Part shown: positions 11,215-26,679 of the stretch, in pieces
How the letters are laid out: every line of letters starts with the position of its first letter
How positions within the stretch are numbered: position 1 is the stretch's first letter
Assembly (NCBI GenBank): GCA_949358305.1
Contig: OX442314.1
Coordinates: 2,731,087-2,795,086 of the forward strand
Origin: Strigamia acuminata
Taxonomy: Eukaryota > Arthropoda > Chilopoda > Geophilomorpha > Linotaeniidae
Direction: 5' to 3'
Length of the DNA stretch: 64,000 bases
Notes under the pieces: generated by a model
What the model saw: the letters and a program-made list of their open reading frames with translations, nothing else
What the model was told of the DNA's origin: nothing
The model's database searches: none
Program-made: the position numbers and the translations under genes

Positions 11215-11597
11215 AGTAGGGGGATAGTGGCAGTCCTGGGCCAGTGGTTGGTGGTGAGGGGGGTGGGGGGTGGTGAGGGGTAAGTAGGGGGAGATAAGGG
11301 GAGGGGAAGATAAGTGGAGGGGGAGATAAGGGGAGGGGAGATAAGGAGAGGGGGAGATAAGGGGAGAGCTAAGTGGGGATGACTAATTGCCTCAATCAAT
11401 CAATCTTATCATTCGATCAATGTGCCCTAGGCTATTATTTGTTATTGTTTTTCTTTACTTAAGTACCTTGTTGTTGTTTTTCCCAAATTTTCAAAGGCCC
11501 CTTGTTTTTCTTTCCTTAAGCACCTTGTTGTTGTTTTTCCCAAATTTTCAAAGGACCCTTAGGCTACTTTTAACCAAAGGAGAGATATTATTGGGTA
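11215..11597 (+). repeat. Polinton left terminal inverted repeat
   Basis: Begins AGTAGGGGGATAGTGG and includes a strongly G-rich tract (to about 11370, runs of GGGG every 5-10 bp, able in principle to form G-quadruplexes) and a roughly 60-bp internal tandem pair containing CTTGTTGTTGTTTTTCCC. It matches 26291-26673 in inverse orientation base for base as far as I can read. Identity stops at GGGTA. Confidence 0.97.
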
Positions 11598-11628
11598 GTC
11601 ATCTTAACCAGTGGGAAACTGGTAATGG

Positions 11629-11636
11629 GTATATAT
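11629..11636 (+). promoter_or_regulatory. TATA box of POLB
   Basis: TATATATA, about 60 bp before the chosen POLB start and just inside the terminal repeat. A small inverted pair ACCAGT/ACTGGT at 11608-11624 sits immediately upstream. Confidence 0.6.
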
Positions 11637-11696
11637 ACTTGCAATTCCCTACTCTCTTCTCTTCACTTCTTGCAAGTGCTAGGTACTGTTTGTATC

Positions 11697-14600
11697 ATGG
11701 AATTTAACCACATTCACTCTGAATTTGCTGAGTTGCTTATGGAAATTGAAGAATCTCTCTTTCCACAAGTAAATACGCCTAATCCTCTATCGGATGTTGA
11801 TGAAGAAAATGGATCCAATGATTCTCCATGTTGGATTTATAATCATTCTCCCATTCTTCCAATCTCATCGCCTACCATTATCAACCAGTCTCAACTCATC
11901 CCATCTCCAACCATCATCAACCAGTCTCAACACGTGCAATCTCCAACCTGTATCCTCCAATCTCAACCTGCATCATTTCAATCATGCAATCCATTGACAT
12001 CATGTGAGTCTCCCGTTCCTCTCTTGATTAACCATCAAATTCATAATCAAGTGGGACAACATAATAATTGCGAATTTGAAGAGATGCTTACGGAAATTGA
12101 AGAATCTCTATTTCCTCAAGTTAACACGCCCAATCCTCTACCAGATGATGAAAATGGATACAATGATTCTCCATGGATTTATAATCATTCTCCAATTTAT
12201 CCACTCTCACCACCTACCATCATCAACCAGTATCAACACGTGCCATCTCCATCTTGCACCAATGCGTTTCAACATGCGCCAACTCCAACCTGCGACAATC
12301 AATCTGAACCTGCATCATCTCAATCGTGCAATCCATCGATATCCTATGAGTCTCCAGTTCCTGTGTACCACTACCAACCAAATTTGTGCCAAGCAGGAAC
12401 AAGCCGCATCGTCAATCCCCCATCTCCTATGGCTTTAGTGCAACAAATTGGAGGTGGAGAGAAAGTACATTCATGTGAGTACTGCAATAAAATTTTTTCA
12501 TGTGTTTCAACGTTAAAAAGGCATCTTATTCATTCGCATACTCTTGCTAAAAGCACATTCTCATGCCCAATTTGTACAAATATTTTTTCGCGCAAAGATG
12601 CTTTGCTGCGACATGTTAAAAAAATTCACAATCGCAGCAAAGAGTTATTTCCCTGCAATGTTTGCAAAAAGTCTTTTTCTTCAAATAATAATTTACTTAA
12701 ACACATGCAAGTTCATGTTCATCCTTTACCCGCCGTTCCACATCCACAACCACTACCCTGTGATGATCCTTGTGTTGACGCATTAGAGGGAAACGTCAAC
12801 ACATATAAAATTCCCGGTAATGATTGTGGTGATTTAAATCACTTTTTCATCCAACACCACAGTCAGGTGAAACGTATTTTAAATTTTCAATTGATTAAAA
12901 AGAAAGCGGTAAAATATTACATCGCCGTTAAAATACATTTTACTCGATCATCACAGAGTGGTGATACAGAAACCATCGCGTGTTTTCGAAGCATTTGCTA
13001 TATTGCGCTCGTTGAATCGGATCTCGAGAACCAATTATTGGAGGCGTACGAGAAAATTAAACGTTCTTGTGCCGAATTTCAACGAGATGGTAGTGGTTGG
13101 GTATTTGAAGCGGTGGTAGAGATGCATGTAAATATTGGTAGATATCGCCCATTGGCTGGAAGATCTTACATCACACTCCCCAAATTTTTAGCAGACAAGA
13201 AAGCAATAATAAATGTGCAAAATGATGATTCTTTGTGTTTTCTCTGGAGTGTTTTAGCTGCTCTGCATCCTGCACCTTCCCATCCTGAACGTGTTTCACA
13301 TTATACCAAGTACCAAAACACTTTAGATTTAACTGGACTTTCATTCCCGATGACAATTCAACAAATCCCCAAGTTTGAATCCATGAATGCAATTAGTGTT
13401 CATGTGTTTGGTTTTGAAAAAGAAGTGTTTCCCCTATACATTAGCAAAATGGAACATAAAACCGAAATAAATTTGTTACTTTTTGCTAATGATCAAACCC
13501 AACATTATTGCTGGATTAAAAATTTAAATAAACTGTTACATTCATTAACACATCATGATCCCCAAGCTCACTATTGTAAATATTGTCTGCATAGATGTTC
13601 GTCAGAACGGATACTAAAAGATCACTTGGAGTATTGCTCAACCTACGGGCTTCAAAAAGTCAAATACCCCACCGATGAAACAAAATGGATGCACTTTACT
13701 GATTTCCATAAACAATTTAAAGTCCCATTTGTAATATATGCGGATTTCGAGTCACTGCTCGTTAAAAATGTTGAAAAAGATGAGACAAGCAAAGTGCAAA
13801 AAGTGTCCAAGCACGTACCATCGGGTTATGCTTATGCCGTAATCAATACAGAAGGTAAACTGCACCAACCTCCATCGGTATATCGAGGTGAAAATGCAGT
13901 TGATCATTTTCTTGATCATATTACTAAATTGGAAGTAGAGTTGGAAAAGCTTATGGCTTTAAATCTTCCAATGGATTTATCGAATGAAGAAAAATTGTTT
14001 ATGGAAAGTGCTACATCTTGTCACATTTGTAATAAGGCATTTTTAAAAAATGAAAAGAAAGTAAGGGACCATGATCATGCTACTGGCAAGTTCCGTGGCC
14101 CTGCTCATAATTTTTGTAATCTGATGTATCGCAGAACATCTAAACAAATTCCTGTTGTGTTTCATAACTTAAAAAATTATGATTCACATTTGTTAATGCA
14201 AGGAATTGGAAAGTATAAAGATCGTGAAATAAGCTGTATTCCAACCAACATGCAACGATATATTACTTTTTCACTCGGAAATCTTCGATTTCTCGATAGT
14301 CTGCAATTTATGAATGCATCTTTAGAATCATTGGTTGCTAATTTATTCAAAAGCGATCCAAACCAATTCCGAATAATGAATCAACATTTCAAACCTGATG
14401 AAATCGGATTGTTATTACGGAAAGGTATTTTTCCATATGAGTACATGGACTCTTGGATCAAATTCAACGAAGTCCAACTTCCTCCCATATCCGAATTTTA
14501 CAGTACTCTAAGTGAGCAAAGTGTATCCGAATCTGACTATAATCATGCAAAGAAAGTGTGGGATAAATTCAATATCCAAAATCTCGGTGTTTATCAAGAC

Positions 14601-16154
14601 CTTTATGTTTTGACGGACGTTTTGCTGCTAGCTGACGTCTTTGAAAATTTTCGATCGATTTGTTTAGAGACTTATAAATTGGATTGTTGCAATTATTTCA
14701 CAACACCCGGTCTCTCATGGGGGGCATGTCTGAAACTAACGGATGTCAAATTAGAACTGTTAACGGATCCGCTTATGCATGTTTTTATTGAAAATGGTAT
14801 TCGCGGTGGTATATCAATGATTAGCCATCGATTTGCTAAAGCCAATCACAAAGATATAGATGGTTATAAAGAGGACCTTCCATCCAATCACATCATCTAT
14901 CTCGATGCGAATAACTTGTACGGCTGGGCAATGAACCAATATTTACCAACTCATAATTTCAAATGGATACCACCCACCGATGATTTTGATGTGTTAAGCA
15001 TTAGTGAAACCGGCACAAAGGGATATATTTTAGAAGTAGATTTAGAATATCCCAAAGAACTCCATGATTCCCATAACGATTATCCTCTTGCTCCCGAACG
15101 ACTAACAGTAACTGAAAACATGTTATCACCCTACAGTCTCGAACACCTTAACCTACTAGAACAAAAACATCACCCATCTCCCAAATTAGTTCCTAACCTT
15201 GCTAACAAAACAAAATACATTATCCACTATCAAAACCTCCAATTGTATTTGAAATTGGGAATGAAAGTCACGAAAATTCATAAAATTCTGGAATTTGAAC
15301 AATCTGATTGGCTTGCAAAGTACATTGGCTTAAATACTGAGTTGCGAAAACAAGCAACCAATAGTTTTCAAAAGGACTTCTTCAAATTGATGAATAATAG
15401 TGTTTTTGGGAAGTCGCTCGAATCCGTCAGGAAACGTGTTGATGTGAGGTTGGTGCAAAATCCAGAGCGAGTGACTAAATTATTAAATTCACCAACTTTT
15501 CACGAGTTCAAGATTTTCAATGAAGATCTTGTAGGTGTACATTTAAAGAAAAGAAATATCCTATTAAATAGACCCATATACGTGGGCTTTTGCATTCTAG
15601 AACTTAGCAAAGTCCTTATGTATGATTTTCATTATAATCATATCAAAAAAACATATGGGAACAAAGCCAAGTTGCTTTTTACTGATACGGATAGTTTAAC
15701 GTATAATATCGAAACAGATGATATTTATGCAGACATGAAAAAAGATTTAGAAAAATTCGACACTTCAGATTATCCTTCCACACACTCCCTATACAGCACA
15801 AAGAATAAAAAGGTAATTGGAAAGTTTAAAGACGAAATGTCCGGGAAATGCATACAGGAATTTCTCGGATTTCGATGTAAAATGTATTCGTTTAAAACAA
15901 AAGATCAAGAAAAAAAGACAGCAAAAGGTGTACCTCGAAGTGTGCGAAATCAACTTCGCCACAAAGACTACAAAGAGTGTCTATTCAACAAAATAGAAAA
16001 CGCACGTTCATCAAATCAAATTCGCTCTTTCGATCACGAATTATATACAATTTTGCAAAAGAAAATTGCTTTGTCTGCTGGAGATGATAAAAGGTACATT
16101 TTGAGTGATGGTGTAACGACTCTAGCTCATGGGCATTACAATATTATTTTGTAA
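11697..16154 (+). CDS. POLB: Polinton protein-primed family B DNA polymerase
   Basis: Replicates the element. I chose ATG 11697 because it follows the TATA box by about 60 bp; an in-frame ATG at 11625 overlaps the TATA box. Length 1,485 residues. Order: an N-terminal region with two copies of an acidic IEESLFPQVNTPNPL block; three C2H2 fingers (about 258-342); a CFLWSVLAALHP region typical of Polinton polymerases; exonuclease motif I YADFES (D683/E685); an endonuclease-VII-like Cys/His insert with VRDHDHATGKFRGPAH (about 775-806); exonuclease II HNLKNYDSH (about 825); exonuclease III with YVLTDVLLLAD (about 970); palm motif A YLDANNLYG (about 1069); motif B KLMNNSVFGK (about 1231); motif C TDTDS (about 1329). 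All catalytic residues are present and the frame is unbroken. Confidence 0.97.
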   Translation: MEFNHIHSEFAELLMEIEESLFPQVNTPNPLSDVDEENGSNDSPCWIYNHSPILPISSPTIINQSQLIPSPTIINQSQHVQSPTCILQSQPASFQSCNPLTSCESPVPLLINHQIHNQVGQHNNCEFEEMLTEIEESLFPQVNTPNPLPDDENGYNDSPWIYNHSPIYPLSPPTIINQYQHVPSPSCTNAFQHAPTPTCDNQSEPASSQSCNPSISYESPVPVYHYQPNLCQAGTSRIVNPPSPMALVQQIGGGEKVHSCEYCNKIFSCVSTLKRHLIHSHTLAKSTFSCPICTNIFSRKDALLRHVKKIHNRSKELFPCNVCKKSFSSNNNLLKHMQVHVHPLPAVPHPQPLPCDDPCVDALEGNVNTYKIPGNDCGDLNHFFIQHHSQVKRILNFQLIKKKAVKYYIAVKIHFTRSSQSGDTETIACFRSICYIALVESDLENQLLEAYEKIKRSCAEFQRDGSGWVFEAVVEMHVNIGRYRPLAGRSYITLPKFLADKKAIINVQNDDSLCFLWSVLAALHPAPSHPERVSHYTKYQNTLDLTGLSFPMTIQQIPKFESMNAISVHVFGFEKEVFPLYISKMEHKTEINLLLFANDQTQHYCWIKNLNKLLHSLTHHDPQAHYCKYCLHRCSSERILKDHLEYCSTYGLQKVKYPTDETKWMHFTDFHKQFKVPFVIYADFESLLVKNVEKDETSKVQKVSKHVPSGYAYAVINTEGKLHQPPSVYRGENAVDHFLDHITKLEVELEKLMALNLPMDLSNEEKLFMESATSCHICNKAFLKNEKKVRDHDHATGKFRGPAHNFCNLMYRRTSKQIPVVFHNLKNYDSHLLMQGIGKYKDREISCIPTNMQRYITFSLGNLRFLDSLQFMNASLESLVANLFKSDPNQFRIMNQHFKPDEIGLLLRKGIFPYEYMDSWIKFNEVQLPPISEFYSTLSEQSVSESDYNHAKKVWDKFNIQNLGVYQDLYVLTDVLLLADVFENFRSICLETYKLDCCNYFTTPGLSWGACLKLTDVKLELLTDPLMHVFIENGIRGGISMISHRFAKANHKDIDGYKEDLPSNHIIYLDANNLYGWAMNQYLPTHNFKWIPPTDDFDVLSISETGTKGYILEVDLEYPKELHDSHNDYPLAPERLTVTENMLSPYSLEHLNLLEQKHHPSPKLVPNLANKTKYIIHYQNLQLYLKLGMKVTKIHKILEFEQSDWLAKYIGLNTELRKQATNSFQKDFFKLMNNSVFGKSLESVRKRVDVRLVQNPERVTKLLNSPTFHEFKIFNEDLVGVHLKKRNILLNRPIYVGFCILELSKVLMYDFHYNHIKKTYGNKAKLLFTDTDSLTYNIETDDIYADMKKDLEKFDTSDYPSTHSLYSTKNKKVIGKFKDEMSGKCIQEFLGFRCKMYSFKTKDQEKKTAKGVPRSVRNQLRHKDYKECLFNKIENARSSNQIRSFDHELYTILQKKIALSAGDDKRYILSDGVTTLAHGHYNIIL

Positions 16155-16337
16155 AAAGTGTTATTTATTTATTTATTTATTTTGTAAACAAAACTGTTAC
16201 ATATTTTTATTATTATTATATCATTATCTTATCATGTAATTTATTTTGTAAATGAAATTATTATTATTATTATTATTATTATTTTTATAAAATAAAACCA
16301 TTATTATATATATTATCGTGTCATTCTTTCACAAACC
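16155..16337. repeat. AT-rich spacer with ATT and TTTA microsatellites
   Basis: Contains (TTTA)n at about 16162-16182 and (ATT)n at about 16255-16285, an AATAAAA possible poly(A) signal for POLB near 16290, and TATATATA near 16305 that could be the TATA box of the next gene. Confidence 0.7.
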
Positions 16338-16724
16338 ATGGACAGAGCAGGATTACAGAAAAACCTGATGCTCTTATTTGAAAATCATAAATTATGGATT
16401 ACGACTGGAAGTTTCTCTGTTGTTGGATGTTGTATCGTTATTCTACAAATCATGATTCTGATGTACTCTCCTCCAACCTTAATCCAACCAACTGTGGATG
16501 TAGTGAAAATGTTGCCTGTATCCAATGGATGCAATTCCACTTTTGATCTAGGAAATGGAAAACAACTAAATATTTGCAAACGTGGAGATGATGTAATATT
16601 TGATATCAGACAGTTTAGCAGAGCTGGTCCATCCATCAAAGGAATTAATTTAAATTGGTATCAATGGATTAGATTAACTCGAGCAATCTCTTTTCTCCAT
16701 TCGAATGTAACTATTGTTAAATAA
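16338..16724 (+). CDS. Small membrane-anchored PC4-like protein
   Basis: 128 residues. Residues about 20-45 are hydrophobic (VVGCCIVILQIMILMY), a signal anchor, followed by a soluble part that ends in a PC4/p15-like fold signature: VIFDIRQF, then IKGINLNWYQWIRL. In PC4 proteins this region binds single-stranded DNA. Combining it with a membrane segment is odd. The gene lies just after POLB and converges on the integrase, whose poly(A) signal (AATAAAG on the minus strand) is about 30 bp downstream. The fold assignment is by motif only. Confidence 0.6.
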   Translation: MDRAGLQKNLMLLFENHKLWITTGSFSVVGCCIVILQIMILMYSPPTLIQPTVDVVKMLPVSNGCNSTFDLGNGKQLNICKRGDDVIFDIRQFSRAGPSIKGINLNWYQWIRLTRAISFLHSNVTIVK

Positions 16725-16776
16725 ACAAGTGCATATGCAATGATCGAAATATATCTTTATTATTTGTGTATACAAA

Positions 16777-17871
16777 TTATAATGGTGGGTTGTCTCGTAA
16801 GTCATCAGCGGGAATCCAGGAATTAAATTCATCTCCATAACCCATCCACTTTACAAAATATAATTTATTCGCACCTTTGCCTTTAGACTTTAATACTGTT
16901 TCTACAGCATACTCCGCATCCTTGGGTTTATTAATTTTCTGCAACTCAAATTCATAAAATGTACCGAGTAAAGGTTCATCATTGTAATCTTTAAGCATAT
17001 AGACAACTTCTGGTGGTCGGATTAATCGATTGGCAATATAATAAATTTGATGCGAATAGCTTCCCCTGTATCCCTTTCGGAAAACCACTTTTGATTTTGA
17101 TATTCTAACACCATCACCAATATTAAACTTAAATTTTTTATGTCTTTTATTTATTGTATCACCATATAAGTGGTAAAACACTGCCGGTTCTTTCTCTTTC
17201 GTAACATCAACAGGTTTCATTCCTAATGTTCGATGAACGCTATGATTATATGAATCAATAAATGTTTGCAGTTGGTCAATATATCGATGTCTGCCGGTAT
17301 ATGTGAAATAAGTCCACATTTTCTGCTTTATGGTCCGATTTAATCTTTCACAAAGTGAACATTTAATATCATCATTTTCACTTGTAAAATGTTTGATGTT
17401 ATTTTTTAGTAAGAATTCCTGAAAAGCTTTATTTAAGTATTCTTTTCCCTTATCGGTCTGTAGAAAAAGGGGTTTAGTCTTGGCACGTTTTAGAATTGTT
17501 TCAAAAGCTTTTATAATATGTTGCGCAGACTTTGTTGGTAAAGCTTCAATATACGCATATCGTGAAAATACATCAATGACAGTCATTAAATATCTATTTC
17601 CATCATTTTCCTTTGCTATGTTTCCAACTTCAACCAAATCCGATTGCCATTGGTAATTAATAGATGGTACAATAGTCTTAGAGCGTTGAAACTTGTATCG
17701 AACTGGTTTATGTAAGGTATATGAGTCTAGTCCTTGTAACCAATCTTGAATCTCCTTTCTGGTAACTTGTACCCCCCGATTACGTGCAGCATGGAACAAT
17801 TTATCTCGACTACTAAATCCGGCAGGATTTCTTGGATTAAAGTAGATATCTTTCAATTGTTGCTCTGCCAT
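16777..17871 (-). CDS. INT: Polinton DDE integrase with C-terminal chromodomain
   Basis: 364 residues. The retroviral-type rve core has catalytic D78 (QWQSDLVEV), D140 (LQTDKGKEY) and E175 (CERLNRTIKQ), a DD34-35E spacing, and is complete. A chromodomain follows at about 313-360 (YFVKWMGYGDEFNSWIPADDL), which in related integrases directs insertion to methylated-histone chromatin. The enzyme would cut the target and join the element ends, giving the 6-bp duplication seen. It is the last gene of a minus-strand run ATPase, 111-aa, 296-aa, INT. Confidence 0.96.
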   Translation of the reverse strand: MAEQQLKDIYFNPRNPAGFSSRDKLFHAARNRGVQVTRKEIQDWLQGLDSYTLHKPVRYKFQRSKTIVPSINYQWQSDLVEVGNIAKENDGNRYLMTVIDVFSRYAYIEALPTKSAQHIIKAFETILKRAKTKPLFLQTDKGKEYLNKAFQEFLLKNNIKHFTSENDDIKCSLCERLNRTIKQKMWTYFTYTGRHRYIDQLQTFIDSYNHSVHRTLGMKPVDVTKEKEPAVFYHLYGDTINKRHKKFKFNIGDGVRISKSKVVFRKGYRGSYSHQIYYIANRLIRPPEVVYMLKDYNDEPLLGTFYEFELQKINKPKDAEYAVETVLKSKGKGANKLYFVKWMGYGDEFNSWIPADDLRDNPPL

Positions 17872-17911
17872 ATGTTTTTCTAACTTTGTTCTATGCTCCT
17901 AGTTATACTGT

Positions 17912-18802
17912 TTATTTCTTTATTTTTTTTCTTTTTTGTGAACCGGAACTTGGTGTTTTATATTTGAATAAACTCTCGTCTTGATCTCGTTGAAATCTTA
18001 AAGATTTGTTTGGTGTTCCGTAATGTGCCCAAGTGTTCTCTAAGTCTGACAGCTCTTGATCTTGATCTGATAGTGTTTGATTATTGATGATGGAGTCATT
18101 TCCACTCAATGACTCTCTATGAATGTCCCTAGTAATTGTGGGAGTTGAAGTGCTCATCGGTCTAATTAATTCCTTTCTTAAATTCTTGTTTATAATGTAT
18201 TCTTTTGGTACATTTGAATCAATCAAAATTTTAATATACTCTGACTGACCAATCGGAATTACATTTTGCTTCGGGCGGTTTCTTATGGTATAGTTTATAA
18301 GATCAGCTTTGGTTGTATTTGGAATTTTTACTCCATCTATAATCATTTCCGATAGATTGCTCCATTTCAACCTTGGATTCAAATTCATAACTTCCATTAA
18401 CGCAATAGCTTGTTTCTTTTGATCTTTTGACATTTTATTCAACATTATTTTATCCAATGGTTGAAGAACAAATGGCGATTGAGATGTGGATAAGTGCGAA
18501 ACAATTGGTGGTGGTGATTGAGGTGGAGATGCGGATTGAGTTGGAGGTGATATAGTAACAGTTTTTGGTGCATTTAATTGTTTAATTAGCTTTTGTTTAA
18601 AGTTTCCAAATTGCGATTGAAGTGTCGATATAAGTTTAGCTTTCATTTCATCATTCAAGTTTGCATCATTGAAAATTTCCTCTATTGACGATTCAATCTT
18701 TTGCAATTTTTGATATTGCGGATCAATATCATCATAGTTCTTTTTCGAATATTGTAAAGATGACATCATTTCCTGCGGTACTAAAACCATTTTCCTAGCC
18801 AT
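17912..18802 (-). CDS. Polinton protein of unknown function, basic C-terminus
   Basis: 296 residues. A charged helical N-terminal part (about 1-75) leads to a proline/serine-rich linker (PPTQSASPPQSPPPI), then a globular middle (about 110-210), an acidic stretch (LSDQDQELSDLE) and a basic tail (SQKRKKIKK) like a nuclear localisation signal or DNA-binding tail. Its position between the integrase and ATPase genes and its 8-nt overlap with the preceding gene suggest co-expression with the packaging genes. It may be one of the uncharacterised conserved Polinton proteins; I cannot assign a role. Confidence 0.75.
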   Translation of the reverse strand: MARKMVLVPQEMMSSLQYSKKNYDDIDPQYQKLQKIESSIEEIFNDANLNDEMKAKLISTLQSQFGNFKQKLIKQLNAPKTVTISPPTQSASPPQSPPPIVSHLSTSQSPFVLQPLDKIMLNKMSKDQKKQAIALMEVMNLNPRLKWSNLSEMIIDGVKIPNTTKADLINYTIRNRPKQNVIPIGQSEYIKILIDSNVPKEYIINKNLRKELIRPMSTSTPTITRDIHRESLSGNDSIINNQTLSDQDQELSDLENTWAHYGTPNKSLRFQRDQDESLFKYKTPSSGSQKRKKIKK

Positions 18803-19130
18803 TTTGTTTACTAATTAGTTTACCTACTAATGCTCCAATAATTGGGGCGAGTAGTTGCGGTAAAAATCCACCAGTTTGAATGACCAAGTTCCGTCTTTGT
18901 TTGAATGAAGATGTAGGAGTGGCCAATTTTCTTAACAACCTTCTCTTTCGATAAAGTGATTGTTTCTGATTTGCTCCTAACTTAATTGTACCTTTTATAA
19001 TGTTTAAACAAATTTCACAGATGGTTTTACAGAAATCATCGTTAGAATGTTTGAGAAAATCCTTGATTTGTCTCTTATTTAAATCGGGAATGGCCCGGAG
19101 CACATTGGCGTGACGTCTTACTCGTTTCAT
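18795..19130 (-). CDS. Small basic Polinton protein with hydrophobic C-terminus
   Basis: 111 residues. A helical N-terminal domain with paired cysteines (CKTICEICLNIIKG) is followed by a very basic stretch (YRKRRLLRKLA) and a glycine-hydrophobic end GGFLPQLLAPIIGALVGKLI. This pattern recurs in small proteins of many invertebrate Polintons. The end looks like an amphipathic, membrane-active peptide, so a virion core or membrane-lytic role is plausible but inferred. It starts 9 bp after the ATPase stop and overlaps the next gene by 8 nt. Confidence 0.75.
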   Translation of the reverse strand: MKRVRRHANVLRAIPDLNKRQIKDFLKHSNDDFCKTICEICLNIIKGTIKLGANQKQSLYRKRRLLRKLATPTSSFKQRRNLVIQTGGFLPQLLAPIIGALVGKLISKQNG

Positions 19131-19139
19131 TGGTGGAAT

Positions 19140-19739
19140 CTATATGTAAACTATAGTATATTCATCCGGAAATATATTAGTCTTCACTCTTTGATCTTGG
19201 GGTGTATCCGGTTTCAAATCAATTAATAAATACCCAAAACTTTGCGCTGTTGCATCGTTAAATGCTGACATGAAAAATTTACCTCGCTGTGGGAACATTT
19301 GACTCCCTACTTTTGCGATTTGATTCATATCCCTTGGATTTCGAAAAAGGATTAAATAGTGACTATTTAAAGATAAAGTTCGTTGATATTTGCTTTGATG
19401 AAATATGTTTTGGCATAAATAAAATACACTAGTGCTCGTATGGTGCGAATATTTAGTCCACAATAACCCAATCTCTTGATTTAAATTTTCCATTTGATCG
19501 TCAATGATGAAAAGCTTTCTCGTTGATGAATCCAAAGTCTTTAAATTGGGTAATCCTTCGTGGAACTGCACATTGGGAAATTCGATATACCACTGTTGCC
19601 ATATTGAATAGTACCAGCAAATATCTTGTGGGGGTGGATCAATCATTTTACTCGCATTTCGGATAATTTTCTTACATATCTCCGTTTTGCCCGTACCCGA
19701 ACTTCCAGAAATAATAGCAGTAAATGGATGATGAAACAT
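19140..19739 (-). CDS. ATP: A32-like genome-packaging ATPase
   Basis: 199 residues. Walker A GSSGTGKT lies at about 12-19 and Walker B LFIIDD at 76-81, as in the FtsK/HerA-type packaging ATPases of Polintons and large DNA viruses. The length is typical of the short Polinton form. It would drive DNA into the capsid. It is the first gene of the minus-strand run and is transcribed divergently from the penton gene across a 53-bp gap. Confidence 0.95.
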   Translation of the reverse strand: MFHHPFTAIISGSSGTGKTEICKKIIRNASKMIDPPPQDICWYYSIWQQWYIEFPNVQFHEGLPNLKTLDSSTRKLFIIDDQMENLNQEIGLLWTKYSHHTSTSVFYLCQNIFHQSKYQRTLSLNSHYLILFRNPRDMNQIAKVGSQMFPQRGKFFMSAFNDATAQSFGYLLIDLKPDTPQDQRVKTNIFPDEYTIVYI

Positions 19740-19792
19740 TGTTCATATAAGAGGTGATGTCACCTCAATGATGCAATCAGAAGTGAGCAGGC
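19740..19792. promoter_or_regulatory. Divergent promoter between ATPase and penton genes
   Basis: Holds CATATAAG (TATA-like, 19744-19751), the inverted repeat GAGGTGA-TG-TCACCTC (19751-19766) and CAGAAGTGAGC directly before the penton ATG. The last resembles the CAGGAAGTGAGC motif upstream of the accessory genes. Confidence 0.55.
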
Positions 19793-20923
19793 ATGGATCC
19801 GGAACAGAGTTTCTATGTGAGTCTTCCATCAAATAGCAGCTTAGATTATTACCCGAATAATACATTGACGGAATTTCATACGCAATTACCATCATATATT
19901 AATTTAGATGAAAATTGGGAAGTGGGTCTGGTTGAATTCCTTTATCCAAGAAGCTGGAGTACTGCTCTATTGCCCCGAGGTGCCGATTTTCGAATACTGA
20001 AGAATGAAGTCAATGCAATCAAATTTCCACCATTCAAATTTGTGGATGCATCCCTACCGCAGGATAAGCTAATATCCGAGTTTCTTAACTTTTTAAATAA
20101 TAATTTAACATCTCCAACCAAGAAAGATGAGAAAGTTAAAGATCTTGACAAAGCATTGCAAAAATTAGGAATTAAATTTCACTGGAATTCCACTCGTTTA
20201 AGATTTGAAATAATAATTATGCCTAAGTTTCAAGTCATGATCCCGCAGAGGCTGGCATATGTGTTAGGTTTTGTGAAAGATGAAGATGATGATTTTTACG
20301 CTGATGAATCCAAGACGGCTCGTGATTCTCCACGTCTCACACCAAATCTTATCAATGATAAAAATTGGAATTTATCAATTGAAAAGGAGACTGATGGTAA
20401 ACAGAAACAAAGCTTGAAACCTGGAAATTATTCGGGACCTGATCAATTAGTAGATGCTTTAAATCTTAAAGCACTCGTAGTTATTGATAAAGCACCATTT
20501 AGTTTTAATATATCATCAAAGAAAATTGAGATTAACTTGCCAATTAACACCAAGTTGGTTCTTGATAAAGCCTTGGCATCAACTCTCGGTTTTAATGATT
20601 TGCGTGTAATTACAAAAACAACAGAAGCTTTTCATAAAATGGATGAACAAGTTGGACTATATCATATGTACTTGTATTGCAATCTAATACAACCAAACAT
20701 TGTTGGGGATACTTTAGCGCCACTGTTAAGAATAATACAGATTCAAGGAAAAGAGCGAGGACAATACATCTCCCAAACTTTTGAAAATCCACATTATAAA
20801 CCGCTGGCAAAATTGCAATTTGAATCCATACAAGTGCTTATAAGGGGTGACACCGGAGAAAAAGTACCATTCGAGTTTGGACGTGTCGTTGCAACGTTAC
20901 ACTTCAGGAAGAGATTGGATTGA
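19793..20923 (+). CDS. Polinton penton / minor capsid protein
   Basis: 376 residues. The start YVSLPSNSSLDYYPNNTLTE followed by WEVGLVEFLYPRSW is the recognisable N-terminus of the Polinton minor capsid (penton-like, single jelly roll) family. A second related motif, NFNISSKKIEIN-type beta-rich sequence, follows in the C-terminal half. It would occupy capsid vertices. It is first in a plus-strand run with the basic capsid protein, major capsid protein and protease; gaps are 2-8 bp, so they are probably made from one transcript or overlapping transcripts. Confidence 0.85.
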   Translation: MDPEQSFYVSLPSNSSLDYYPNNTLTEFHTQLPSYINLDENWEVGLVEFLYPRSWSTALLPRGADFRILKNEVNAIKFPPFKFVDASLPQDKLISEFLNFLNNNLTSPTKKDEKVKDLDKALQKLGIKFHWNSTRLRFEIIIMPKFQVMIPQRLAYVLGFVKDEDDDFYADESKTARDSPRLTPNLINDKNWNLSIEKETDGKQKQSLKPGNYSGPDQLVDALNLKALVVIDKAPFSFNISSKKIEINLPINTKLVLDKALASTLGFNDLRVITKTTEAFHKMDEQVGLYHMYLYCNLIQPNIVGDTLAPLLRIIQIQGKERGQYISQTFENPHYKPLAKLQFESIQVLIRGDTGEKVPFEFGRVVATLHFRKRLD

Positions 20924-20927
20924 CAAG

Positions 20928-21410
20928 ATGAGATTTCACTATGAACTAAACCCTCAAATCTGCATGGATAGATATTGCTCAAATCATGCGCAAATAGGTG
21001 GAGCAGATCTTCCTATATTTGTAGGATCTCGCTATCAACAAGGACATGGTTTGGGTTCACTTATAAGTGACGCATTTCGAATTGTAAAGCCTTTTGTGAG
21101 AAGTGGAGCGTTGGATGCAGCAACGTATGGTTTGAAGAGAGGATTAGACGTAATTTCCGATATGCGTGTAAACAAGAGAAAATTTGGAAATGCATTTAAA
21201 GATCAGGTTGTTCGAACCAAATCGGATTTTTTAAAAAAGATTGGTGTACAGAAAGGAGGCAAACAAAAGCGGATGGATGGTAAACAAAAGAAAAGACGTG
21301 TAACCAAACAAAAGAATCAGTCTAAGAGACGAACTCGACCAAAGAAGAACGTGCGTAGGAAGTCCTGCAAAAGGAAAACTTCACTTCTTGGACCTGACAT
21401 ATTTGATTAG
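20928..21410 (+). CDS. Basic capsid-associated protein
   Basis: 160 residues from ATG 20928, four bases after the penton stop. Residues about 35-75 (YQQGHGLGSLISDAFRIVKP, then a glycine-containing amphipathic helix) match a pattern common to small Polinton/adintovirus proteins. The C-terminal half is an extreme lysine/arginine tail (KKRRVTKQKNQSKRRTRPKK), as expected of a DNA-condensing core protein. By position and layout it may serve like an adenovirus core or pVI-type protein; that is inference. The frame is also open upstream inside the penton gene, but the ATG right after the stop is the natural start. Confidence 0.75.
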   Translation: MRFHYELNPQICMDRYCSNHAQIGGADLPIFVGSRYQQGHGLGSLISDAFRIVKPFVRSGALDAATYGLKRGLDVISDMRVNKRKFGNAFKDQVVRTKSDFLKKIGVQKGGKQKRMDGKQKKRRVTKQKNQSKRRTRPKKNVRRKSCKRKTSLLGPDIFD

Positions 21411-21412
21411 CC

Positions 21413-22750
21413 ATGCCGCAATTTCCCCATGAATCATCTGCCGAAGGCGCGACTCCAGAACTAGACATTTTTGGATTACCACTCACACAAATAACTGTGG
21501 AAGATAATTATTGGAGTGAATACCATCCAATTACAGCCGTAACTGCAGGACAGCCATTAGATTTTTCAATCAAGGGTACTGCTGATACGTACATTGACTT
21601 GAGTCAAACATACTTGTTACTAAATGTAACTGTAACCGATGGTGCTGGGGCTGTAATTACAAAAACAGCTAAGGTTTCTCCTACAAATTTATTCCTACAT
21701 TCATTGTTCAGTCAAATAGATGTTAGACTAAATGATAAGCTAGTGTCAGCTTCCGATTCAAATTATTGTTATAGAAGTTATCTCGAAACAATTCTCAGTT
21801 TTTCAAATGATGCCAAAAAGAGTTATAAAACAGTGGAGATGTATTATGAGGATACAGGAGGATCATTTGATGATTTAGATCCAACAGTAGCAGATTTTAA
21901 CGAGGAGTTTGGAATTTATAAACGATATCATCGACTCATGCAGGATGGTGATTGTGGAAAATTACAGATGTTTGGAAGACTTCACTGCGATATCTTTTCT
22001 CAACCACATTATCTCATAAATAATGTTGACTTGCGAATTACACTTACTAGACAAAATGATGCATTTAGTTTAATTTCAAAAGAGGCAGGGGCGGCCTATA
22101 AAACAGTTATAAATGATGCAACTTTATTTGTAAAAAAGATAGTTCCTAGCGCTAGTGTACTCTTAGCTCATCATCAAGCATTAGAGCAACGTAATGCGAA
22201 ATATCCCATTAGAAGGGTAGAAGTTAAGACATTTACAATTGCTACAGGATCGCAAACTGCTATGATTGATAATGCATTTCTCGGTCAATATCCATCCCGA
22301 TTGATTATTGGTCTTGTGAAAAACACTGCCTACTGCGGATCATATGCCAGTAATCCGTATAATTTTGAAAACCAAGGAATAAATTTTCTTCAAGTATTTT
22401 TGGATGGAAAAGGAGTACCAATGAGTCCATATAAGCCAGATTTTGCAAAAGGACAAGCAGCTCGTGAATTTATTACCTTATACCAAACTATGAATAGAGC
22501 AGATAAAGATTTAGGATTAGGCATTTCGTATACTGATTATTGTTTAGGCGGAAATGTTTTATTTGGATTTGATTTAACGCAAGATGCATCCGCCGGTCAA
22601 CCACATTTGAATTTAGTAAAACAAGGAAATGTTAGGATTGAAATGAGATTTAATAAAGCCTTAACTGCAACCATAACCGTATTAGTACTGGCGGAATATC
22701 AATCCATACTGGAGATTGATAGAGCGAGGAATATCATTACTGAATTTTAA
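21413..22750 (+). CDS. MCP: Double-jelly-roll major capsid protein
   Basis: 445 residues. The sequence from ELDIFGLPLTQ through DLSQTYLLLNVTV, SLFSQIDVRLNDKLV and YPIRRVEVKTF follows the Polinton major capsid family, widely annotated in animal genomes as uncharacterised F54H12.2-like. Length and motif order are normal and the frame is intact. Trimers of this protein would form the icosahedral shell. The start is 2 bp after the preceding stop. Confidence 0.95.
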   Translation: MPQFPHESSAEGATPELDIFGLPLTQITVEDNYWSEYHPITAVTAGQPLDFSIKGTADTYIDLSQTYLLLNVTVTDGAGAVITKTAKVSPTNLFLHSLFSQIDVRLNDKLVSASDSNYCYRSYLETILSFSNDAKKSYKTVEMYYEDTGGSFDDLDPTVADFNEEFGIYKRYHRLMQDGDCGKLQMFGRLHCDIFSQPHYLINNVDLRITLTRQNDAFSLISKEAGAAYKTVINDATLFVKKIVPSASVLLAHHQALEQRNAKYPIRRVEVKTFTIATGSQTAMIDNAFLGQYPSRLIIGLVKNTAYCGSYASNPYNFENQGINFLQVFLDGKGVPMSPYKPDFAKGQAAREFITLYQTMNRADKDLGLGISYTDYCLGGNVLFGFDLTQDASAGQPHLNLVKQGNVRIEMRFNKALTATITVLVLAEYQSILEIDRARNIITEF

Positions 22751-22758
22751 CTCAAGCT

Positions 22759-23283
22759 ATGAACACGCTCCAAATAACGGAGATTTTATCTAAGAATTCA
22801 GTGACGAGGCAAATTTTTAAAGGTGTATATCCAATTGATTTGCTATCCTCATCGCAACAAACAAACAAAACATGCGCGTTTGTTGTAAATACTCATCCCC
22901 ATACAAAACCAGGCGAACATTGGGTAGCATTGTTTCGAGATGAGAAAGTACCCGGTGCGATTGAATATTTTGATTCGTTCGGTAAACCACCAGCGAAAGA
23001 AATTACTGCTTTTATTCAAAATATTGGATGTAAACTAACCAACAGGATTACTCAAACCTATCAATCACCGTGTAGTCTCGCATGTGGATATTATTGCATT
23101 TATTTTATTTATAATAGGTGTAAAGGAAAAAGCTTTGATTATATAAAAAATCAATTTAATCCAAGAAATCCATATTACAATGATAAAAAAGTTACAAAAT
23201 TTGTTAAACATATTTTTAATTTTAAGATGTCAACATTGTATGATAAAAATTGTATCGTACAAATAAGTAAAACAAAGAAATAA
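22759..23283 (+). CDS. PRO: Adenain-like capsid maturation cysteine protease
   Basis: 174 residues of the C5/Ulp1-type fold. Catalytic residues are visible: H54 (PGEHWVALF), D72 (EYFDSFG), Q102 (YQSPC) and C109 (LACGYYC). In adenoviruses and Polintons this enzyme trims virion proteins. It follows MCP by 8 bp and closes the plus-strand capsid run. The stop codon overlaps an AATAAA, a likely poly(A) signal. It converges on the BIR gene 29 bp away. Confidence 0.95.
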   Translation: MNTLQITEILSKNSVTRQIFKGVYPIDLLSSSQQTNKTCAFVVNTHPHTKPGEHWVALFRDEKVPGAIEYFDSFGKPPAKEITAFIQNIGCKLTNRITQTYQSPCSLACGYYCIYFIYNRCKGKSFDYIKNQFNPRNPYYNDKKVTKFVKHIFNFKMSTLYDKNCIVQISKTKK

Positions 23284-23312
23284 AGTAATTGTTACAAAAT
23301 CTGGTGTTTCTA

Positions 23313-23639
23313 TCAACCTGGTGTATCTAACCCATAGATGGATTTATAAATCAACCACTCTTCATTCAGTCCTTTTTCAAAAGTAATTCTCATTAATGGA
23401 CAATAGGCATACCAAGAATAATGTTCCAAAAGAGGTATGTCACCACGTTTCCACTCTTTTAATCGACCGAGACAGTAGACGCACTCAACATGATCATTTT
23501 CACCCAAGTATTTGAATCCAGCACGGGCTAAGGTGGAAGGGTCGGCGATGTGTCTAGAAACAGGCCAGTTGCGAAAGGTTTGCTTCCGTTCCCGGATTCG
23601 CCGCATCATCTCCGTTCGCATTTTCATTTCCCGTTCCAT
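23313..23639 (-). CDS. BIR-domain (inhibitor-of-apoptosis-like) protein
   Basis: 108 residues from ATG 23639. One BIR domain spans about residues 18-85: TFRNWP, LARAGFKYLGENDHVEC, then zinc ligands C53, C56, H73 and C80 in exact C-x2-C-x16-H-x6-C spacing. There is no RING. BIR proteins bind caspases or their antagonists; a viral-type copy would suppress host cell death. Its first 86 nt overlap the end of the exonuclease-like gene in another frame, so it needs its own initiation, a frameshift or splicing to join the two. An upstream frame extension reaches 23687 but lacks ATG. The BIR assignment is firm; the anti-apoptotic role is inferred. Confidence 0.9.
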   Translation of the reverse strand: MEREMKMRTEMMRRIRERKQTFRNWPVSRHIADPSTLARAGFKYLGENDHVECVYCLGRLKEWKRGDIPLLEHYSWYAYCPLMRITFEKGLNEEWLIYKSIYGLDTPG

Positions 23640-24213
23640 GAAGGAGGGCTTCAAGATCGTCGAGATAAGAATGGTCTTGAGTTTCAATACACCACTCCTT
23701 AAAGCAAAGACACTCAGCTTGAGGACAGTGCATTAACTTGGAGGGAAGTAGGGATTCATGAAGGTGACATAAAGGTTTTGAATCAGGATCAAGATTAAAA
23801 TGAAGGTCCTGATATTTTGGACATCCCAATGATTCCAGGTCGAGGTATGGAATGTCACATTTGATTAACCAATTTTTTTCAATTTGGCCTCCTTTGAATG
23901 CAATAATTGGTCTGTTGGCTTCCTGAACACAATTTATATGTAAAGATGTGAGGATAAAAGGAATCCAGCTTTGAGGTAGATCATCAGGACCATCTTCAAA
24001 CTTCATACCGTGGATATTACGTTTTAACCAAGCAGCAACTTTTTGCCATTTTGGTTCTAGTTTGTCAAATTGTCCAACACGAAAGTGATAACTTAAAGTA
24101 GAATCCTTGTATAGAAAACACACTCCGAGCTCCTTGAGTAGAAAGTCGGGACCAAACTGGAATCCCTCAAAGTCAATAATACAACCTACGTTTTTTAATT
24201 GTTCCGAATTCAT
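23554..24213 (-). CDS. DEDD-exonuclease-like protein
   Basis: 219 residues from ATG 24213. The start IIDFEGFQFG (D14/E16), KELGVCF, and later IIAFKGGQIEKNWL (about 103-116) and a Cys/His cluster C-HLHE...MHCPQAEC (about 149-168) match a family of RNase-H-fold DEDD-type frames common in invertebrate mobile elements. If active it would trim DNA or RNA ends. Assignment rests on motif pattern and the full catalytic set is not proven. It begins 13 bp after the ALKBH2-like gene, overlaps BIR by 86 nt, and is probably co-transcribed with both. Confidence 0.55.
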   Translation of the reverse strand: MNSEQLKNVGCIIDFEGFQFGPDFLLKELGVCFLYKDSTLSYHFRVGQFDKLEPKWQKVAAWLKRNIHGMKFEDGPDDLPQSWIPFILTSLHINCVQEANRPIIAFKGGQIEKNWLIKCDIPYLDLESLGCPKYQDLHFNLDPDSKPLCHLHESLLPSKLMHCPQAECLCFKEWCIETQDHSYLDDLEALLHGTGNENANGDDAANPGTEANLSQLACF

Positions 24214-24226
24214 TCTAAAACACGAA

Positions 24227-24925
24227 TTAAAATAAATATTCATTTATAATAATATCATTAAATAAATGGAACTTACTTTGAATGATGTTTCTAAAAGTTA
24301 AGTTGATTCGCGGATGAAGTGCAGAAATTTGCTTTGGAAGACTGTGATACCAAAAACGGTTTGTAGGTTGGTGCATTAGCAGAATGCTACCGTGTTCCAA
24401 CGCGAGAGAAATCGGCTTTGGTGGTAAGACTGAGTTGCGAATAGTATACTTTCGCTTAAGAGACACGTGACGAAGAACAAAGTTTCTGTTTTGTCCTAGA
24501 GACAGGCTCGCTATTGGTGCGTTTGGATGAAGTCCCACCTCATCGTCTCGATGTTCACCAATAGTCTGGTTGCCATTTGCATAACGATTAACGAGAACAA
24601 AGTTAAATTCATGTCCGGTAACAAACTGAACGGCATCTCGTAAATCACGCAAAAGAGGAGTCCAAGTTTTAACCGGTAAAGTATTACCAGAAAATGAATA
24701 TTTCAATCCATCATCACCAAATGCAACTTGTTGTCTCGGTATATTGATCCACTTGCCATAAATCTTGATTTGACTCAGTCTACCTGTATAGTATGTGATT
24801 TCATTTTCCAGCTTTTGAAATGTAGAATCAGCTACTTCTTTGTTGAAAAGAAGCCCATACTGCAAGTGTAAATCCTGCTTGAGAATATCTTTCCAACAAA
24901 CAGGCTCTATTGTCGTCTTCTCCAT
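24227..24925 (-). CDS. ALKBH2-like 2-oxoglutarate/Fe(II) DNA dealkylase
   Basis: 232 residues. It tracks ALKBH2/3: PRQQVAFGDDGLKYSFSG (about 63-80), FNFVLVNRYANG, iron ligands H125 and D127 (GEHRDDE) and H194 (WYHSLP), and 2-oxoglutarate-binding R206 and R212 (PRINLTFR). These enzymes oxidatively remove 1-methyladenine and 3-methylcytosine from DNA. A repair gene inside a Polinton probably came from a host by transfer. The start lies 32 bp after a TATATATA box (24957-24964). Every catalytic residue is present, so activity is likely. Confidence 0.93.
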   Translation of the reverse strand: MEKTTIEPVCWKDILKQDLHLQYGLLFNKEVADSTFQKLENEITYYTGRLSQIKIYGKWINIPRQQVAFGDDGLKYSFSGNTLPVKTWTPLLRDLRDAVQFVTGHEFNFVLVNRYANGNQTIGEHRDDEVGLHPNAPIASLSLGQNRNFVLRHVSLKRKYTIRNSVLPPKPISLALEHGSILLMHQPTNRFWYHSLPKQISALHPRINLTFRNIIQSKFHLFNDIIINEYLF

Positions 24926-24956
24926 GTTTTTTCATCCAAAAGAAACATCAGCTCGG

Positions 24957-24964
24957 TATATATA
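24957..24964 (-). promoter_or_regulatory. TATA box of the ALKBH2-like gene
   Basis: TATATATA 32 bp upstream of the ATG at 24925. This distance implies a very short leader. Confidence 0.65.
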
Positions 24965-24992
24965 GCAGTTAACCTATTCTGCTGTCCAATCG

Positions 24993-25308
24993 GAGACATG
25001 TCTAAACTTGCCCTCCCAAGCGGTTTCAACAAATTATAGCAGAGGACTCCTCCCCTTTGCACCGCTCACTTCCTGTTTTATCCCCCCTTCCAAACAGTGC
25101 CATTGCTGAGACATGTTGAAACTTGTCTAAAATGGTTTCAACGAATCATAGCAGAGGAGACATTTGCACCACTCACTTTCTGTTTTATCCTCCCTTCCAA
25201 ACAGTGCAATTGATGAGATATGTTGAAACTTGTCTAAAATGGTTTCAACGAATCATAGCAGAGGACAACGTTGCACCGCTCGCTTCCTGTTTTATCCTCC
25301 ATTTCCAC
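24993..25308 (-). promoter_or_regulatory. Three tandem ~107-115-bp upstream repeats with ETS-like motif
   Basis: Units begin at 24993, 25108 and 25215. Each holds GGTTTCAAC-AATCATAGCAGAGGA and, read on the minus strand, GGATAAAACAGGAAGTGAGC or a close variant. ACAGGAAGTGA matches the ETS-factor consensus; the middle copy has AGAAAGTGAG. A fourth copy of the motif plus the adjoining GGGGAGGAGT lies alone at 26227-26265 upstream of the PC4-like gene. The array is upstream of the ALKBH2-like gene and looks like an enhancer-type promoter array. Confidence 0.65.
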
Positions 25309-25508
25309 TAATATAACACAAACACCCTTATTACAACTTAACTTATTTGTTAAAGAAATTAATGAAAGAAAAAAGATGTATTCTTATTCAAACAAATTTT
25401 ATTTATATAATTAACACAAAAAAAAAAGAAATAAGTACAAAAAAAAAAATTTAAACTAAAGTATACAATTTCTATTCTACCAATACAAATAACAAATTAA
25501 CTATAAAT

Positions 25509-26165
25509 CTATTCATCATCATCAGTATCGACAGGTACACTGGTAGGTTTTGAATTGACATCCTCATCAGAAGAATCCACAAAATGCACACCAGGAATGG
25601 GTCTCTGATATGGTTTCTTCTTCATTTGCTTTCTCTCCTTTTTCTTTTTTAAAACAATTGGAGCTTGAGATGTGGTCGGAGTAACAAATGAACTTGCAGT
25701 TGTTTCCTCGGGAATAGCTGGAAATTGAAGGTTGCTCTCTTGCAACTTTGACAGAGCTTCATCGATGCCCGAAAATATGGATGATCGCTGCTTCTTGAGT
25801 TGACGCCATTGTTCATACGAAAGCAGAATAAACTTCTCTGGCGCAAATGAATGACATATCATCAAAGATACATCATCAGTTTTCGACTTGGAAATAGTGA
25901 CTAAAACACCACCTACACACTCAATGGTTGATGATTTCTTGGTTTTTAAATTCGCAATTTCACTCGTTATCTGCTTCCAATGTTCCACAAAATCATAAAA
26001 TGTCTTAACGTTCATGCACATACCATCACGAGAGGGATACAGCTTTCCGTTCGGGTATGTCAGAAATCGTCTTAGGTGGATGTAGACTCCAGCTAGAAAT
26101 GGATTGACTTGACAATAGATCTCCCCACCAAGAGAGTAGATCCCGCTGCTTGAAGTAGTAGTCAT
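25509..26165 (-). CDS. PC4-like ssDNA-binding protein with acidic tail
   Basis: 218 residues from ATG 26165. An in-frame ATG at 26213 overlaps the TATA box (TATAAATG) and is unlikely to be used. Residues about 14-65 carry the PC4 pattern: VYIHLRRF, then PNGKLYPSRDGMCMN and an aromatic FVEHW. A linker, a lysine-rich patch (KKKKERKQMKKK) and an acidic serine tail (DSSDEDVNS, TDDDE) follow. PC4 relatives bind single-stranded DNA and can activate transcription or assist replication. It could serve as the element's ssDNA-binding protein for strand-displacement synthesis. Confidence 0.7.
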   Translation of the reverse strand: MTTTSSSGIYSLGGEIYCQVNPFLAGVYIHLRRFLTYPNGKLYPSRDGMCMNVKTFYDFVEHWKQITSEIANLKTKKSSTIECVGGVLVTISKSKTDDVSLMICHSFAPEKFILLSYEQWRQLKKQRSSIFSGIDEALSKLQESNLQFPAIPEETTASSFVTPTTSQAPIVLKKKKERKQMKKKPYQRPIPGVHFVDSSDEDVNSKPTSVPVDTDDDE

Positions 26166-26210
26166 GGCTTGTTTGTGAAAGAAATGGTGAGTATCCCAAA
26201 ATGCGAGTTG

Positions 26211-26265
26211 CATTTATACAGGATAACTCCTCCCCTTTGAACCGCTCACTTCCTGTTTTACCCTT
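26211..26265 (-). promoter_or_regulatory. TATA box and ETS-like motif of the PC4-like gene
   Basis: TATAAA (minus strand, about 26212-26217) is directly preceded on that strand by GGGGAGGAGTTATCC and ACAGGAAGTGAGCGG, matching the array at 24993-25308. Confidence 0.65.
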
Positions 26266-26290
26266 CCTTTCCATCACTGACATTGATGAG

Positions 26291-26673
26291 TACCCAATAA
26301 TATCTCTCCTTTGGTTAAAAGTAGCCTAAGGGTCCTTTGAAAATTTGGGAAAAACAACAACAAGGTGCTTAAGGAAAGAAAAACAAGGGGCCTTTGAAAA
26401 TTTGGGAAAAACAACAACAAGGTACTTAAGTAAAGAAAAACAATAACAAATAATAGCCTAGGGCACATTGATCGAATGATAAGATTGATTGATTGAGGCA
26501 ATTAGTCATCCCCACTTAGCTCTCCCCTTATCTCCCCCTCTCCTTATCTCCCCTCCCCTTATCTCCCCCTCCACTTATCTTCCCCTCCCCTTATCTCCCC
26601 CTACTTACCCCTCACCACCCCCCACCCCCCTCACCACCAACCACTGGCCCAGGACTGCCACTATCCCCCTACT
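26291..26673 (-). repeat. Polinton right terminal inverted repeat
   Basis: Inverse copy of 11215-11597, same length, no difference found by eye, ending CCCCCTACT. Confidence 0.97.
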
Positions 26674-26679
26674 CCCATT
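26674..26679. repeat. Polinton target-site duplication, right (CCCATT)
   Basis: Second copy of the six bases at 11209-11214. Confidence 0.95.

What the first reader, a model, noticed from the sequence alone, without database searches (positions are those of the whole stretch)
23313..26265. Accessory block in a Polinton: DNA dealkylase, exonuclease-like, BIR and PC4-like genes together
An ALKBH2-like repair enzyme, a DEDD-like exonuclease, an apoptosis inhibitor domain and an ssDNA-binding protein lie in one minus-strand block under similar upstream elements. This looks like a replication-support and host-defence-evasion module. The ALKBH2-like gene is the most unexpected: it would clear alkylation damage from single-stranded intermediates made during protein-primed replication. 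I do not recall a described Polinton with this combination.
Basis: partly seen in the sequence, partly recalled or inferred. Interest (0 to 1): 0.9.

Follow-up and report, generated by a model that had tools for sequence, protein, structure and literature searches.

The report
Polinton cassette shared with another virus
A virus-like mobile element in an animal genome carries a preserved set of four extra genes (DNA repair, nuclease, anti-apoptosis and single-strand-DNA binding), and relatives of two of them also sit in a much larger DNA virus fossilised in the same genome, which points to gene trading between the two.

Summary
Window 11215-26673 is a recently inserted Polinton: 389-bp TIRs 100% identical, 6-bp duplication CCCATT. 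Its right end carries, on the minus strand, a PC4/Pur-alpha-like protein, an ALKBH2-type dealkylase, a zinc-DEDDh-type exonuclease and a BIR protein. All four lie together at 12 of 12 loci of this family in the host genome. Against a diverged subfamily (two copies) dN/dS is 0.06-0.33: working genes, not dead host exons. Corrections: the shared upstream repeats precede only AlkB and PC4; BIR starts inside the exonuclease ORF in another frame; the exonuclease matches no sequence family, but its model lies closest to arenavirus nucleoprotein exonucleases, Maelstrom lower. New: an endogenous PIF-0-encoding large virus, 4 copies in this genome, has an AlkB 74-77% identical (tree 100/100) and an exonuclease whose sister (98/97) is in a third Polinton lineage. 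Two genes thus seem to have crossed between Polintons and a naldavirus-like virus. Replication support and defence evasion remain inference; no transcripts or assays. New variant of a known kind; host unidentified; literature search incomplete (service failed).

The parts
11215..26673 (.). Polinton with both ends, 15,459 bp
   Evidence: TIR pair 100% identical, 6-bp duplication, rve+chromo integrase, adenain-like protease
11209..11214 (.). left target-site duplication CCCATT
   Evidence: read
26674..26679 (.). right target-site duplication CCCATT
   Evidence: read
11215..11603 (+). left terminal inverted repeat
26285..26673 (-). right terminal inverted repeat
11625..16154 (+). large replication ORF, read as protein-primed PolB (motif reading recalled; no Pfam polymerase hit); N-terminal C2H2 fingers and Endonuclease VII domain
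16777..17871 (-). retroviral-type integrase with chromodomain
   Evidence: PF00665 7.7e-18, PF00385 3.2e-8
19140..19739 (-). packaging-ATPase-like ORF
   Evidence: weak Adeno_IVa2 0.0016, Pox_A32 0.0025, both under cut-off
21413..22750 (+). putative major capsid protein (by position and size; no family hit)
   Evidence: 61% identical relative at C12
22759..23283 (+). adenain-like protease
   Evidence: PF00770 4.2e-7
23313..23639 (-). BIR protein, 108 aa
   Evidence: PF00653 2.1e-19; start from conserved ATG with a stop just upstream in L023/L024
23554..24213 (-). zinc-DEDDh-type exonuclease
24215..24276 (-). candidate 62-nt intron between AlkB end and exonuclease start (GTAAGT donor, TTT[TC]AG acceptor)
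   Evidence: both ends present in 12 of 12 sequences compared, from 11 of the 12 loci (L008 and L022 are one locus; C1:6.14 Mb not read); length; not tested by transcripts
24227..24925 (-). ALKBH2-type 2-oxoglutarate/Fe(II) dealkylase
25034..25307 (.). three copies of the upstream repeat before AlkB
26214..26290 (.). related repeat before the PC4-like gene
25509..26213 (-). PC4/Pur-alpha-like protein, two predicted strand-rich repeats each ending in helix

Best explanation
A recently amplified Polinton (adintovirus-like provirus) carries a selected accessory cassette assembled by horizontal gene traffic. SHOWN: both ends and target-site duplication, co-occurrence at 12 loci, purifying selection on all four genes, sharing of AlkB and the exonuclease family with an endogenous PIF-0-encoding large DNA virus, and of the exonuclease family (with a BIR relative nearby) with another Polinton lineage. 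INFERRED mechanism: the PC4/Pur-like protein coats single strands displaced in protein-primed replication; the ALKBH2-type enzyme removes alkyl lesions from the element's DNA without the N-terminal motif recalled to tie cellular ALKBH2 to PCNA; the zinc-DEDDh exonuclease trims 3' ends of viral DNA or destroys RNA that feeds host silencing; the BIR protein delays apoptosis of the producing cell. PC4 and AlkB are probably switched on together through their shared upstream repeats.
Against: No transcript, protein or assay data. The upstream repeats precede two of four genes only. L023 and L024 are close kin, so the selection test is nearly one comparison; a third copy gave 0.48 for its split exonuclease, and near-identical copies gave 0.83-1.10 for PC4 on 4-5 changes. 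The direction of transfer is not resolved. PC4 model confidence is low (pLDDT 56.7). Foldseek TM-scores of the exonuclease to NP domains are modest (0.42-0.54, ranks 1-10). Its motif II would be Glu (E122), not the usual Asp, and 3 of 25 homologues lack an acid at position 177. In the C13 copy of the large virus AlkB is flipped relative to the other three. Function is by homology.
Confidence: 0.6

Rival explanations
1. Host exons or processed genes inserted into a dead element; the block does nothing.
For: AlkB falls near the host's own ALKBH2 genes in the tree (93/67); some copies have broken genes (AlkB at C1:16.4 Mb; PC4 at C1:31.47 Mb).
Against: 12 of 12 loci carry all four genes; dN/dS 0.06-0.33 against the diverged subfamily; TIRs 100% identical; Polinton+virus AlkB sits on a stem of 0.85 changes per site.
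Confidence: 0.05
2. Independent captures: Polinton and large virus each took ALKBH2 from an animal, without exchange between them.
For: Both lie next to the host's ALKBH2 in the tree; AlkB-family genes are known in giant viruses (PMC10598087, passage).
Against: Polinton and virus AlkB are 74-77% identical, against 46-55% with database ALKBH2 proteins listed and 50-60% with host exons, and form a 100/100 clade on a 0.85 stem.
Confidence: 0.1
3. The exonuclease acts on RNA as a suppressor of small-RNA silencing or of RNA sensing, rather than on the element's DNA.
Confidence: 0.4
4. The ALKBH2-like enzyme counters 3-methylcytosine made as a by-product of host DNA methyltransferases acting on the resident element, rather than general damage during replication.
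For: The protein is ALKBH2-type with an aromatic probing hairpin (IYG for VFG), fit for duplex DNA; the link of ALKBH2 to DNA methyltransferases across animals is recalled, from no call.
Against: No methylation data; host unidentified.
Confidence: 0.15

Closest known systems
Polintons/Mavericks and Adintoviridae
   Same: TIRs, 6-bp duplication, chromodomain integrase, adenain-like protease; capsid ORF by position
   Different: This accessory set. 'AlkB' occurs 0 times in the main texts of PMC8363768, PMC11071308, PMC11071296 and PMC10675110; 'inhibitor of apoptosis' 0 in the first; 'BIR' and 'apoptosis' 0 in the second; 'apoptosis' 0 in the last two (one 'BIR' in PMC11071296 was not shown)
Unannotated viral proteins of the exonuclease's fold: Drosophila-associated adintovirus 2 (A0A7D4ZHK6), ichnovirus ORFs, and two better hits without a name (A0A0K1Y8R3, Q4FEW2)
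   Same: Same fold: E 1.7e-8, 2.1e-7 and 2.5e-7 (ichnovirus), 6.2e-15 and 2.0e-9
   Different: Company of AlkB/BIR/PC4 genes there not checked
Arenavirus nucleoprotein exonuclease domain
   Different: 15-19% identity in the NP rows; RNA virus; no sequence hit
Maelstrom (MAEL) domain
   Different: Lower Z; MAEL is recalled to have lost the acidic catalytic set, which this family keeps
Animal ALKBH2
   Same: Same family; 46-55% identity in the listed database proteins, 50-60% by host exon; catalytic residues kept
   Different: One uninterrupted ORF, whereas host matches come in 2 or 3 exons; lacks the N-terminal M-D-x-F start seen in two of three animal rows
Endogenous nimaviruses of crustaceans (PMC10871703: abstract, outline and passages seen)
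   Same: Large endogenous arthropod DNA viruses with captured eukaryotic genes, BIR genes among them
   Different: AlkB and Polinton occur 0 times in that main text; the virus here is placed only as PIF-0-bearing

Membership tests
Polinton/Maverick | long TIRs and 6-bp target-site duplication | tested here: met
Polinton/Maverick | retroviral-type integrase | tested here: met
   PF00665, PF00385
Polinton/Maverick | adenain-like cysteine protease | tested here: met
   PF00770 4.2e-7
Polinton/Maverick | protein-primed family B DNA polymerase | tested here: inconclusive
   1509-aa ORF with polymerase-like motifs by eye (recalled), but no Pfam polymerase hit in the pieces scanned and no PDB hit
Polinton/Maverick | double-jelly-roll capsid protein and packaging ATPase | tested here: inconclusive
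   capsid ORF has no family or PDB hit; ATPase hits under cut-off
ALKBH2 | HxD...H iron site and RxNxxxR | tested here: met
ALKBH2 | closer to ALKBH2 than ALKBH3 | tested here: met
   4.8e-63 against 3.6e-22
ALKBH2 | demethylase activity on DNA | not testable with these tools
   needs protein
IAP / BIR proteins | BIR domain with its Cys/His positions | tested here: met
   PF00653 over its cut-off; Cys and His positions align with NAIP BIRs
IAP / BIR proteins | anti-apoptotic activity | not testable with these tools
   needs an assay; Pfam found only BIR and a sub-threshold zf-C3HC in the ORF
DEDDh exonuclease | RNase H-like exonuclease fold | tested here: met
DEDDh exonuclease | four acids and a histidine | tested here: inconclusive
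   D24, E/D26, E122, H172, E/D177 conserved, but their place in the active site was not checked on coordinates
Maelstrom domain | membership by profile or as closest fold | tested here: inconclusive
PC4 | PC4 ssDNA-binding fold | tested here: inconclusive
   22.6 of 25 bits; fold hits from a model of pLDDT 56.7
Naldaviricetes-like large virus (holder of the shared genes) | PIF genes | tested here: inconclusive
   PIF-0/p74 over its cut-off at 4 loci; searches for two other PIF families did not complete

The most novel reading that the evidence does not exclude
Polintons and a naldavirus-like giant provirus living in the same nucleus exchange counter-defence genes: AlkB and a zinc-DEDDh nuclease of arenavirus-NP/Maelstrom type moved between them separately, and the nuclease is a DNA-virus suppressor of small-RNA silencing.
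Probability: 0.25. Interest if true: 0.85.

Novelty: new variant of a known kind. Interest (0 to 1): 0.62.

Why it matters
It gives a concrete case, with many near-identical and diverged copies, of likely gene flow between Polintons and a PIF-type large DNA virus in one host genome. It also ties a protein family seen unannotated in an adintovirus, ichnoviruses and metagenomes to a zinc-DEDDh exonuclease fold, which makes its role testable, and shows that a 15-kb element can keep an ALKBH2-type repair enzyme under selection.

Tried and rejected
Host exons in a dead element: rejected by co-occurrence and dN/dS. Nested Polinton inside the large virus as the source of its AlkB/exonuclease: no other Polinton protein matched L012-L015 or L031; only about 45 kb of one copy was read. 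Maelstrom as the exonuclease's own family: my first idea, from the C-x2-H...C pattern; arenavirus NP ranks higher and Pfam Maelstrom was not listed. Relatives in IMG/VR: queries with the exonuclease, capsid (36), AlkB (37) and integrase (114) found none, so that collection could not test co-occurrence outside this genome. The single-sequence protein search with the exonuclease found none; the 3-row profile found 27. Exonuclease-BIR frameshift or spliced fusion: considered; a separate BIR ATG is better supported. Substitutions in the 86-nt overlap are few (5 and 8), too few to prove dual coding. Polymerase relation between this element and the ORF near the C12 AlkB: none found, so that polymerase may belong to another element. 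One viral AlkB clade including the C12 element is not rejected (p-AU 0.588), so one or two captures stay open. The p74 ORF had no PDB hit. Literature: answered searches were Polinton+BIR+AlkB (1 paper, on giant viruses), adintovirus+apoptosis+Maverick (0), Polinton+inhibitor of apoptosis (2, off topic by listing, not opened), adintovirus (29, 20 listed), endogenous+nimavirus+crustacean (9); the others failed, so absence from print is not established. The adintovirus founding paper could not be read.
Full report
THE ELEMENT. An inverted repeat of 389 bp, 100% complementary, spans 11215-11603 and 26285-26673, flanked by CCCATT on both sides. Inside are a 1509-aa replication ORF, integrase with chromodomain, ATPase-like ORF, capsid-position ORF and adenain-like protease. 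This is a Polinton with the marks of a recent insertion. The polymerase and capsid assignments rest on position and recalled motifs; no profile confirmed them.

CO-OCCURRENCE AND SELECTION. Searching the genome with each protein gave the same 12 loci: AlkB (86% identity or more), exonuclease (92% or more), BIR (85% or more), PC4 (70% or more over at least 231 residues). One has a broken AlkB (C1:16.4 Mb), one a PC4 gene with a stop (C1:31.47 Mb), one an exonuclease split by an insert (C1:31.39 Mb). The capsid ORF is full length at 9 of the 12, partial at 2, and not listed at 1 (in that copy, L023, one search found no capsid match). Nine loci have TIR matches at both ends, eight 15.0-15.2 kb across and one 31.4 kb. 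The other hits of those searches are diverged relatives, fragments or host genes: 18 more AlkB rows of 30 (one of them the second piece of the broken copy), 18 more exonuclease rows of 30 (one of them the second piece of the split copy), 9 more BIR rows of 21, 15 more PC4 rows of 27, among these one fragment at 71%. Against two diverged copies (L023, L024), which are close kin, dN/dS is 0.18/0.23 (AlkB), 0.06/0.08 (exonuclease), 0.18/0.14 (BIR), 0.32/0.33 (PC4). L008, with the split exonuclease, gave 0.18 for AlkB and 0.48 for the exonuclease; three near-identical copies gave 0.83-1.10 for PC4 on 4-5 changes, too few to read.

EXPRESSION SIGNALS. A 107-nt repeat (92% between two copies) lies upstream of AlkB and a related stretch upstream of PC4; a 24-nt core occurs four times in the element. 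Between AlkB and the exonuclease a GTAAGT donor and a TTT[TC]AG acceptor 62 nt apart in the window persist in 12 of 12 sequences from 11 loci, including two copies at 81-82% identity in which the stretch between has changed and lost 8 nt. If spliced, the AlkB stop would overlap the exonuclease ATG; that is inference. The BIR ATG at 23639 is kept in two diverged copies that have a stop codon just before it.

SHARED GENES. Four other loci encode an AlkB 74-75% identical to this one by the genome search (77% over 219 residues for the copy read). In each, an exonuclease relative (47%) lies 27-40 kb away and a Baculo_p74 (PIF-0) match 104-268 kb from AlkB, in the same order; in the C13 copy AlkB is flipped. 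One copy was read in part (C5, L012-L015, L031): it has thymidylate synthase, an ORF that reads to the eye like thymidylate kinase and the p74 ORF, and no match to a Polinton protein except AlkB and exonuclease. I take it as an endogenous large virus of the PIF-bearing kind; searches for two further PIF families did not complete. The AlkB tree has 47 rows: 42 database proteins that I picked for spread from the 120 listed of 735 found, two host genes, the window, the virus and the C12 element. Polinton and virus are sisters (100/100), next to the host's ALKBH2 genes (93/67) and the diverged Polinton at C12 (95/70). The C12 element has a capsid ORF (61%) and, about 18 kb on behind retroelement-like ORFs, a protease (47%) with AlkB 17 nt after it. 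A quick tree with two more Polinton copies keeps Polintons plus virus (SH-aLRT 100) but does not resolve which is nested. Polinton-virus AlkB dS is 0.735, dN/dS 0.22. In the exonuclease tree (28 rows; other genome copies not included) the virus is sister to a third Polinton lineage at C1:31.16 Mb (98/97), not to the window's; that lineage has integrase (52-57%) and two other Polinton ORFs (35%, 56%), plus the exonuclease and, next to it, a BIR relative with one in-frame stop. So the two genes seem to have moved separately.

ALKB DETAIL. Iron and 2-oxoglutarate residues are kept. The hairpin VFG of human ALKBH2 is IYG here, consistent with probing duplex DNA (role recalled). The N-terminal M-D-x-F start of two of three animal ALKBH2 rows is absent; in cells it is recalled as a PCNA-binding motif.

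LIMITS. AlkB-family genes in giant viruses are already in print (PMC10598087, passages). Papers seen: passages of PMC11071296, PMC8363768, PMC11071308, PMC10675110, PMC10598087; abstract, outline and passages of PMC10871703. Starrett et al. 2021 was not readable.

Noticed in passing
G000:C5:11.09-11.23 Mb, C5:11.55-11.72, C3:1.88-2.03, C13:1.33-1.64 Mb (L012-L015, L029-L031): Four copies of an endogenous large DNA virus with PIF-0; in the copy read also thymidylate synthase and an ORF like thymidylate kinase.
   Followed up: partly
L016-L017, C1:31.16 Mb, and a second copy near C1:31.26 Mb: A third Polinton lineage with an exonuclease and three BIR-like stretches in or near it, the nearest with one in-frame stop; seemingly duplicated as a block at a distance of about 101 kb.
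   Followed up: partly
C30:8.5-22.4 kb, C13:5.26-5.29 and 3.986-4.000 Mb, C1:60.09 Mb (L021 for a single end at C1:51.72 Mb): Other elements of 13-27 kb carry a PC4-like gene (60-61% identical) just inside both inverted ends, so the gene may be part of long TIRs.
   Followed up: no
16338-16724: Short plus-strand ORF with a hydrophobic stretch and a weak second PC4-like match (E 0.032, under cut-off).
   Followed up: no
11625-16154: The replication ORF has N-terminal C2H2 fingers and an Endonuclease VII domain, and no Pfam polymerase hit in the pieces scanned.
   Followed up: partly
C1:7.84-7.91 Mb: Seven TIR-like copies (79%) all in one orientation, at uneven distances.
   Followed up: no
1-644 and 48291-49233: A repeat array present in inverted orientation 48 kb apart.
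   Followed up: no
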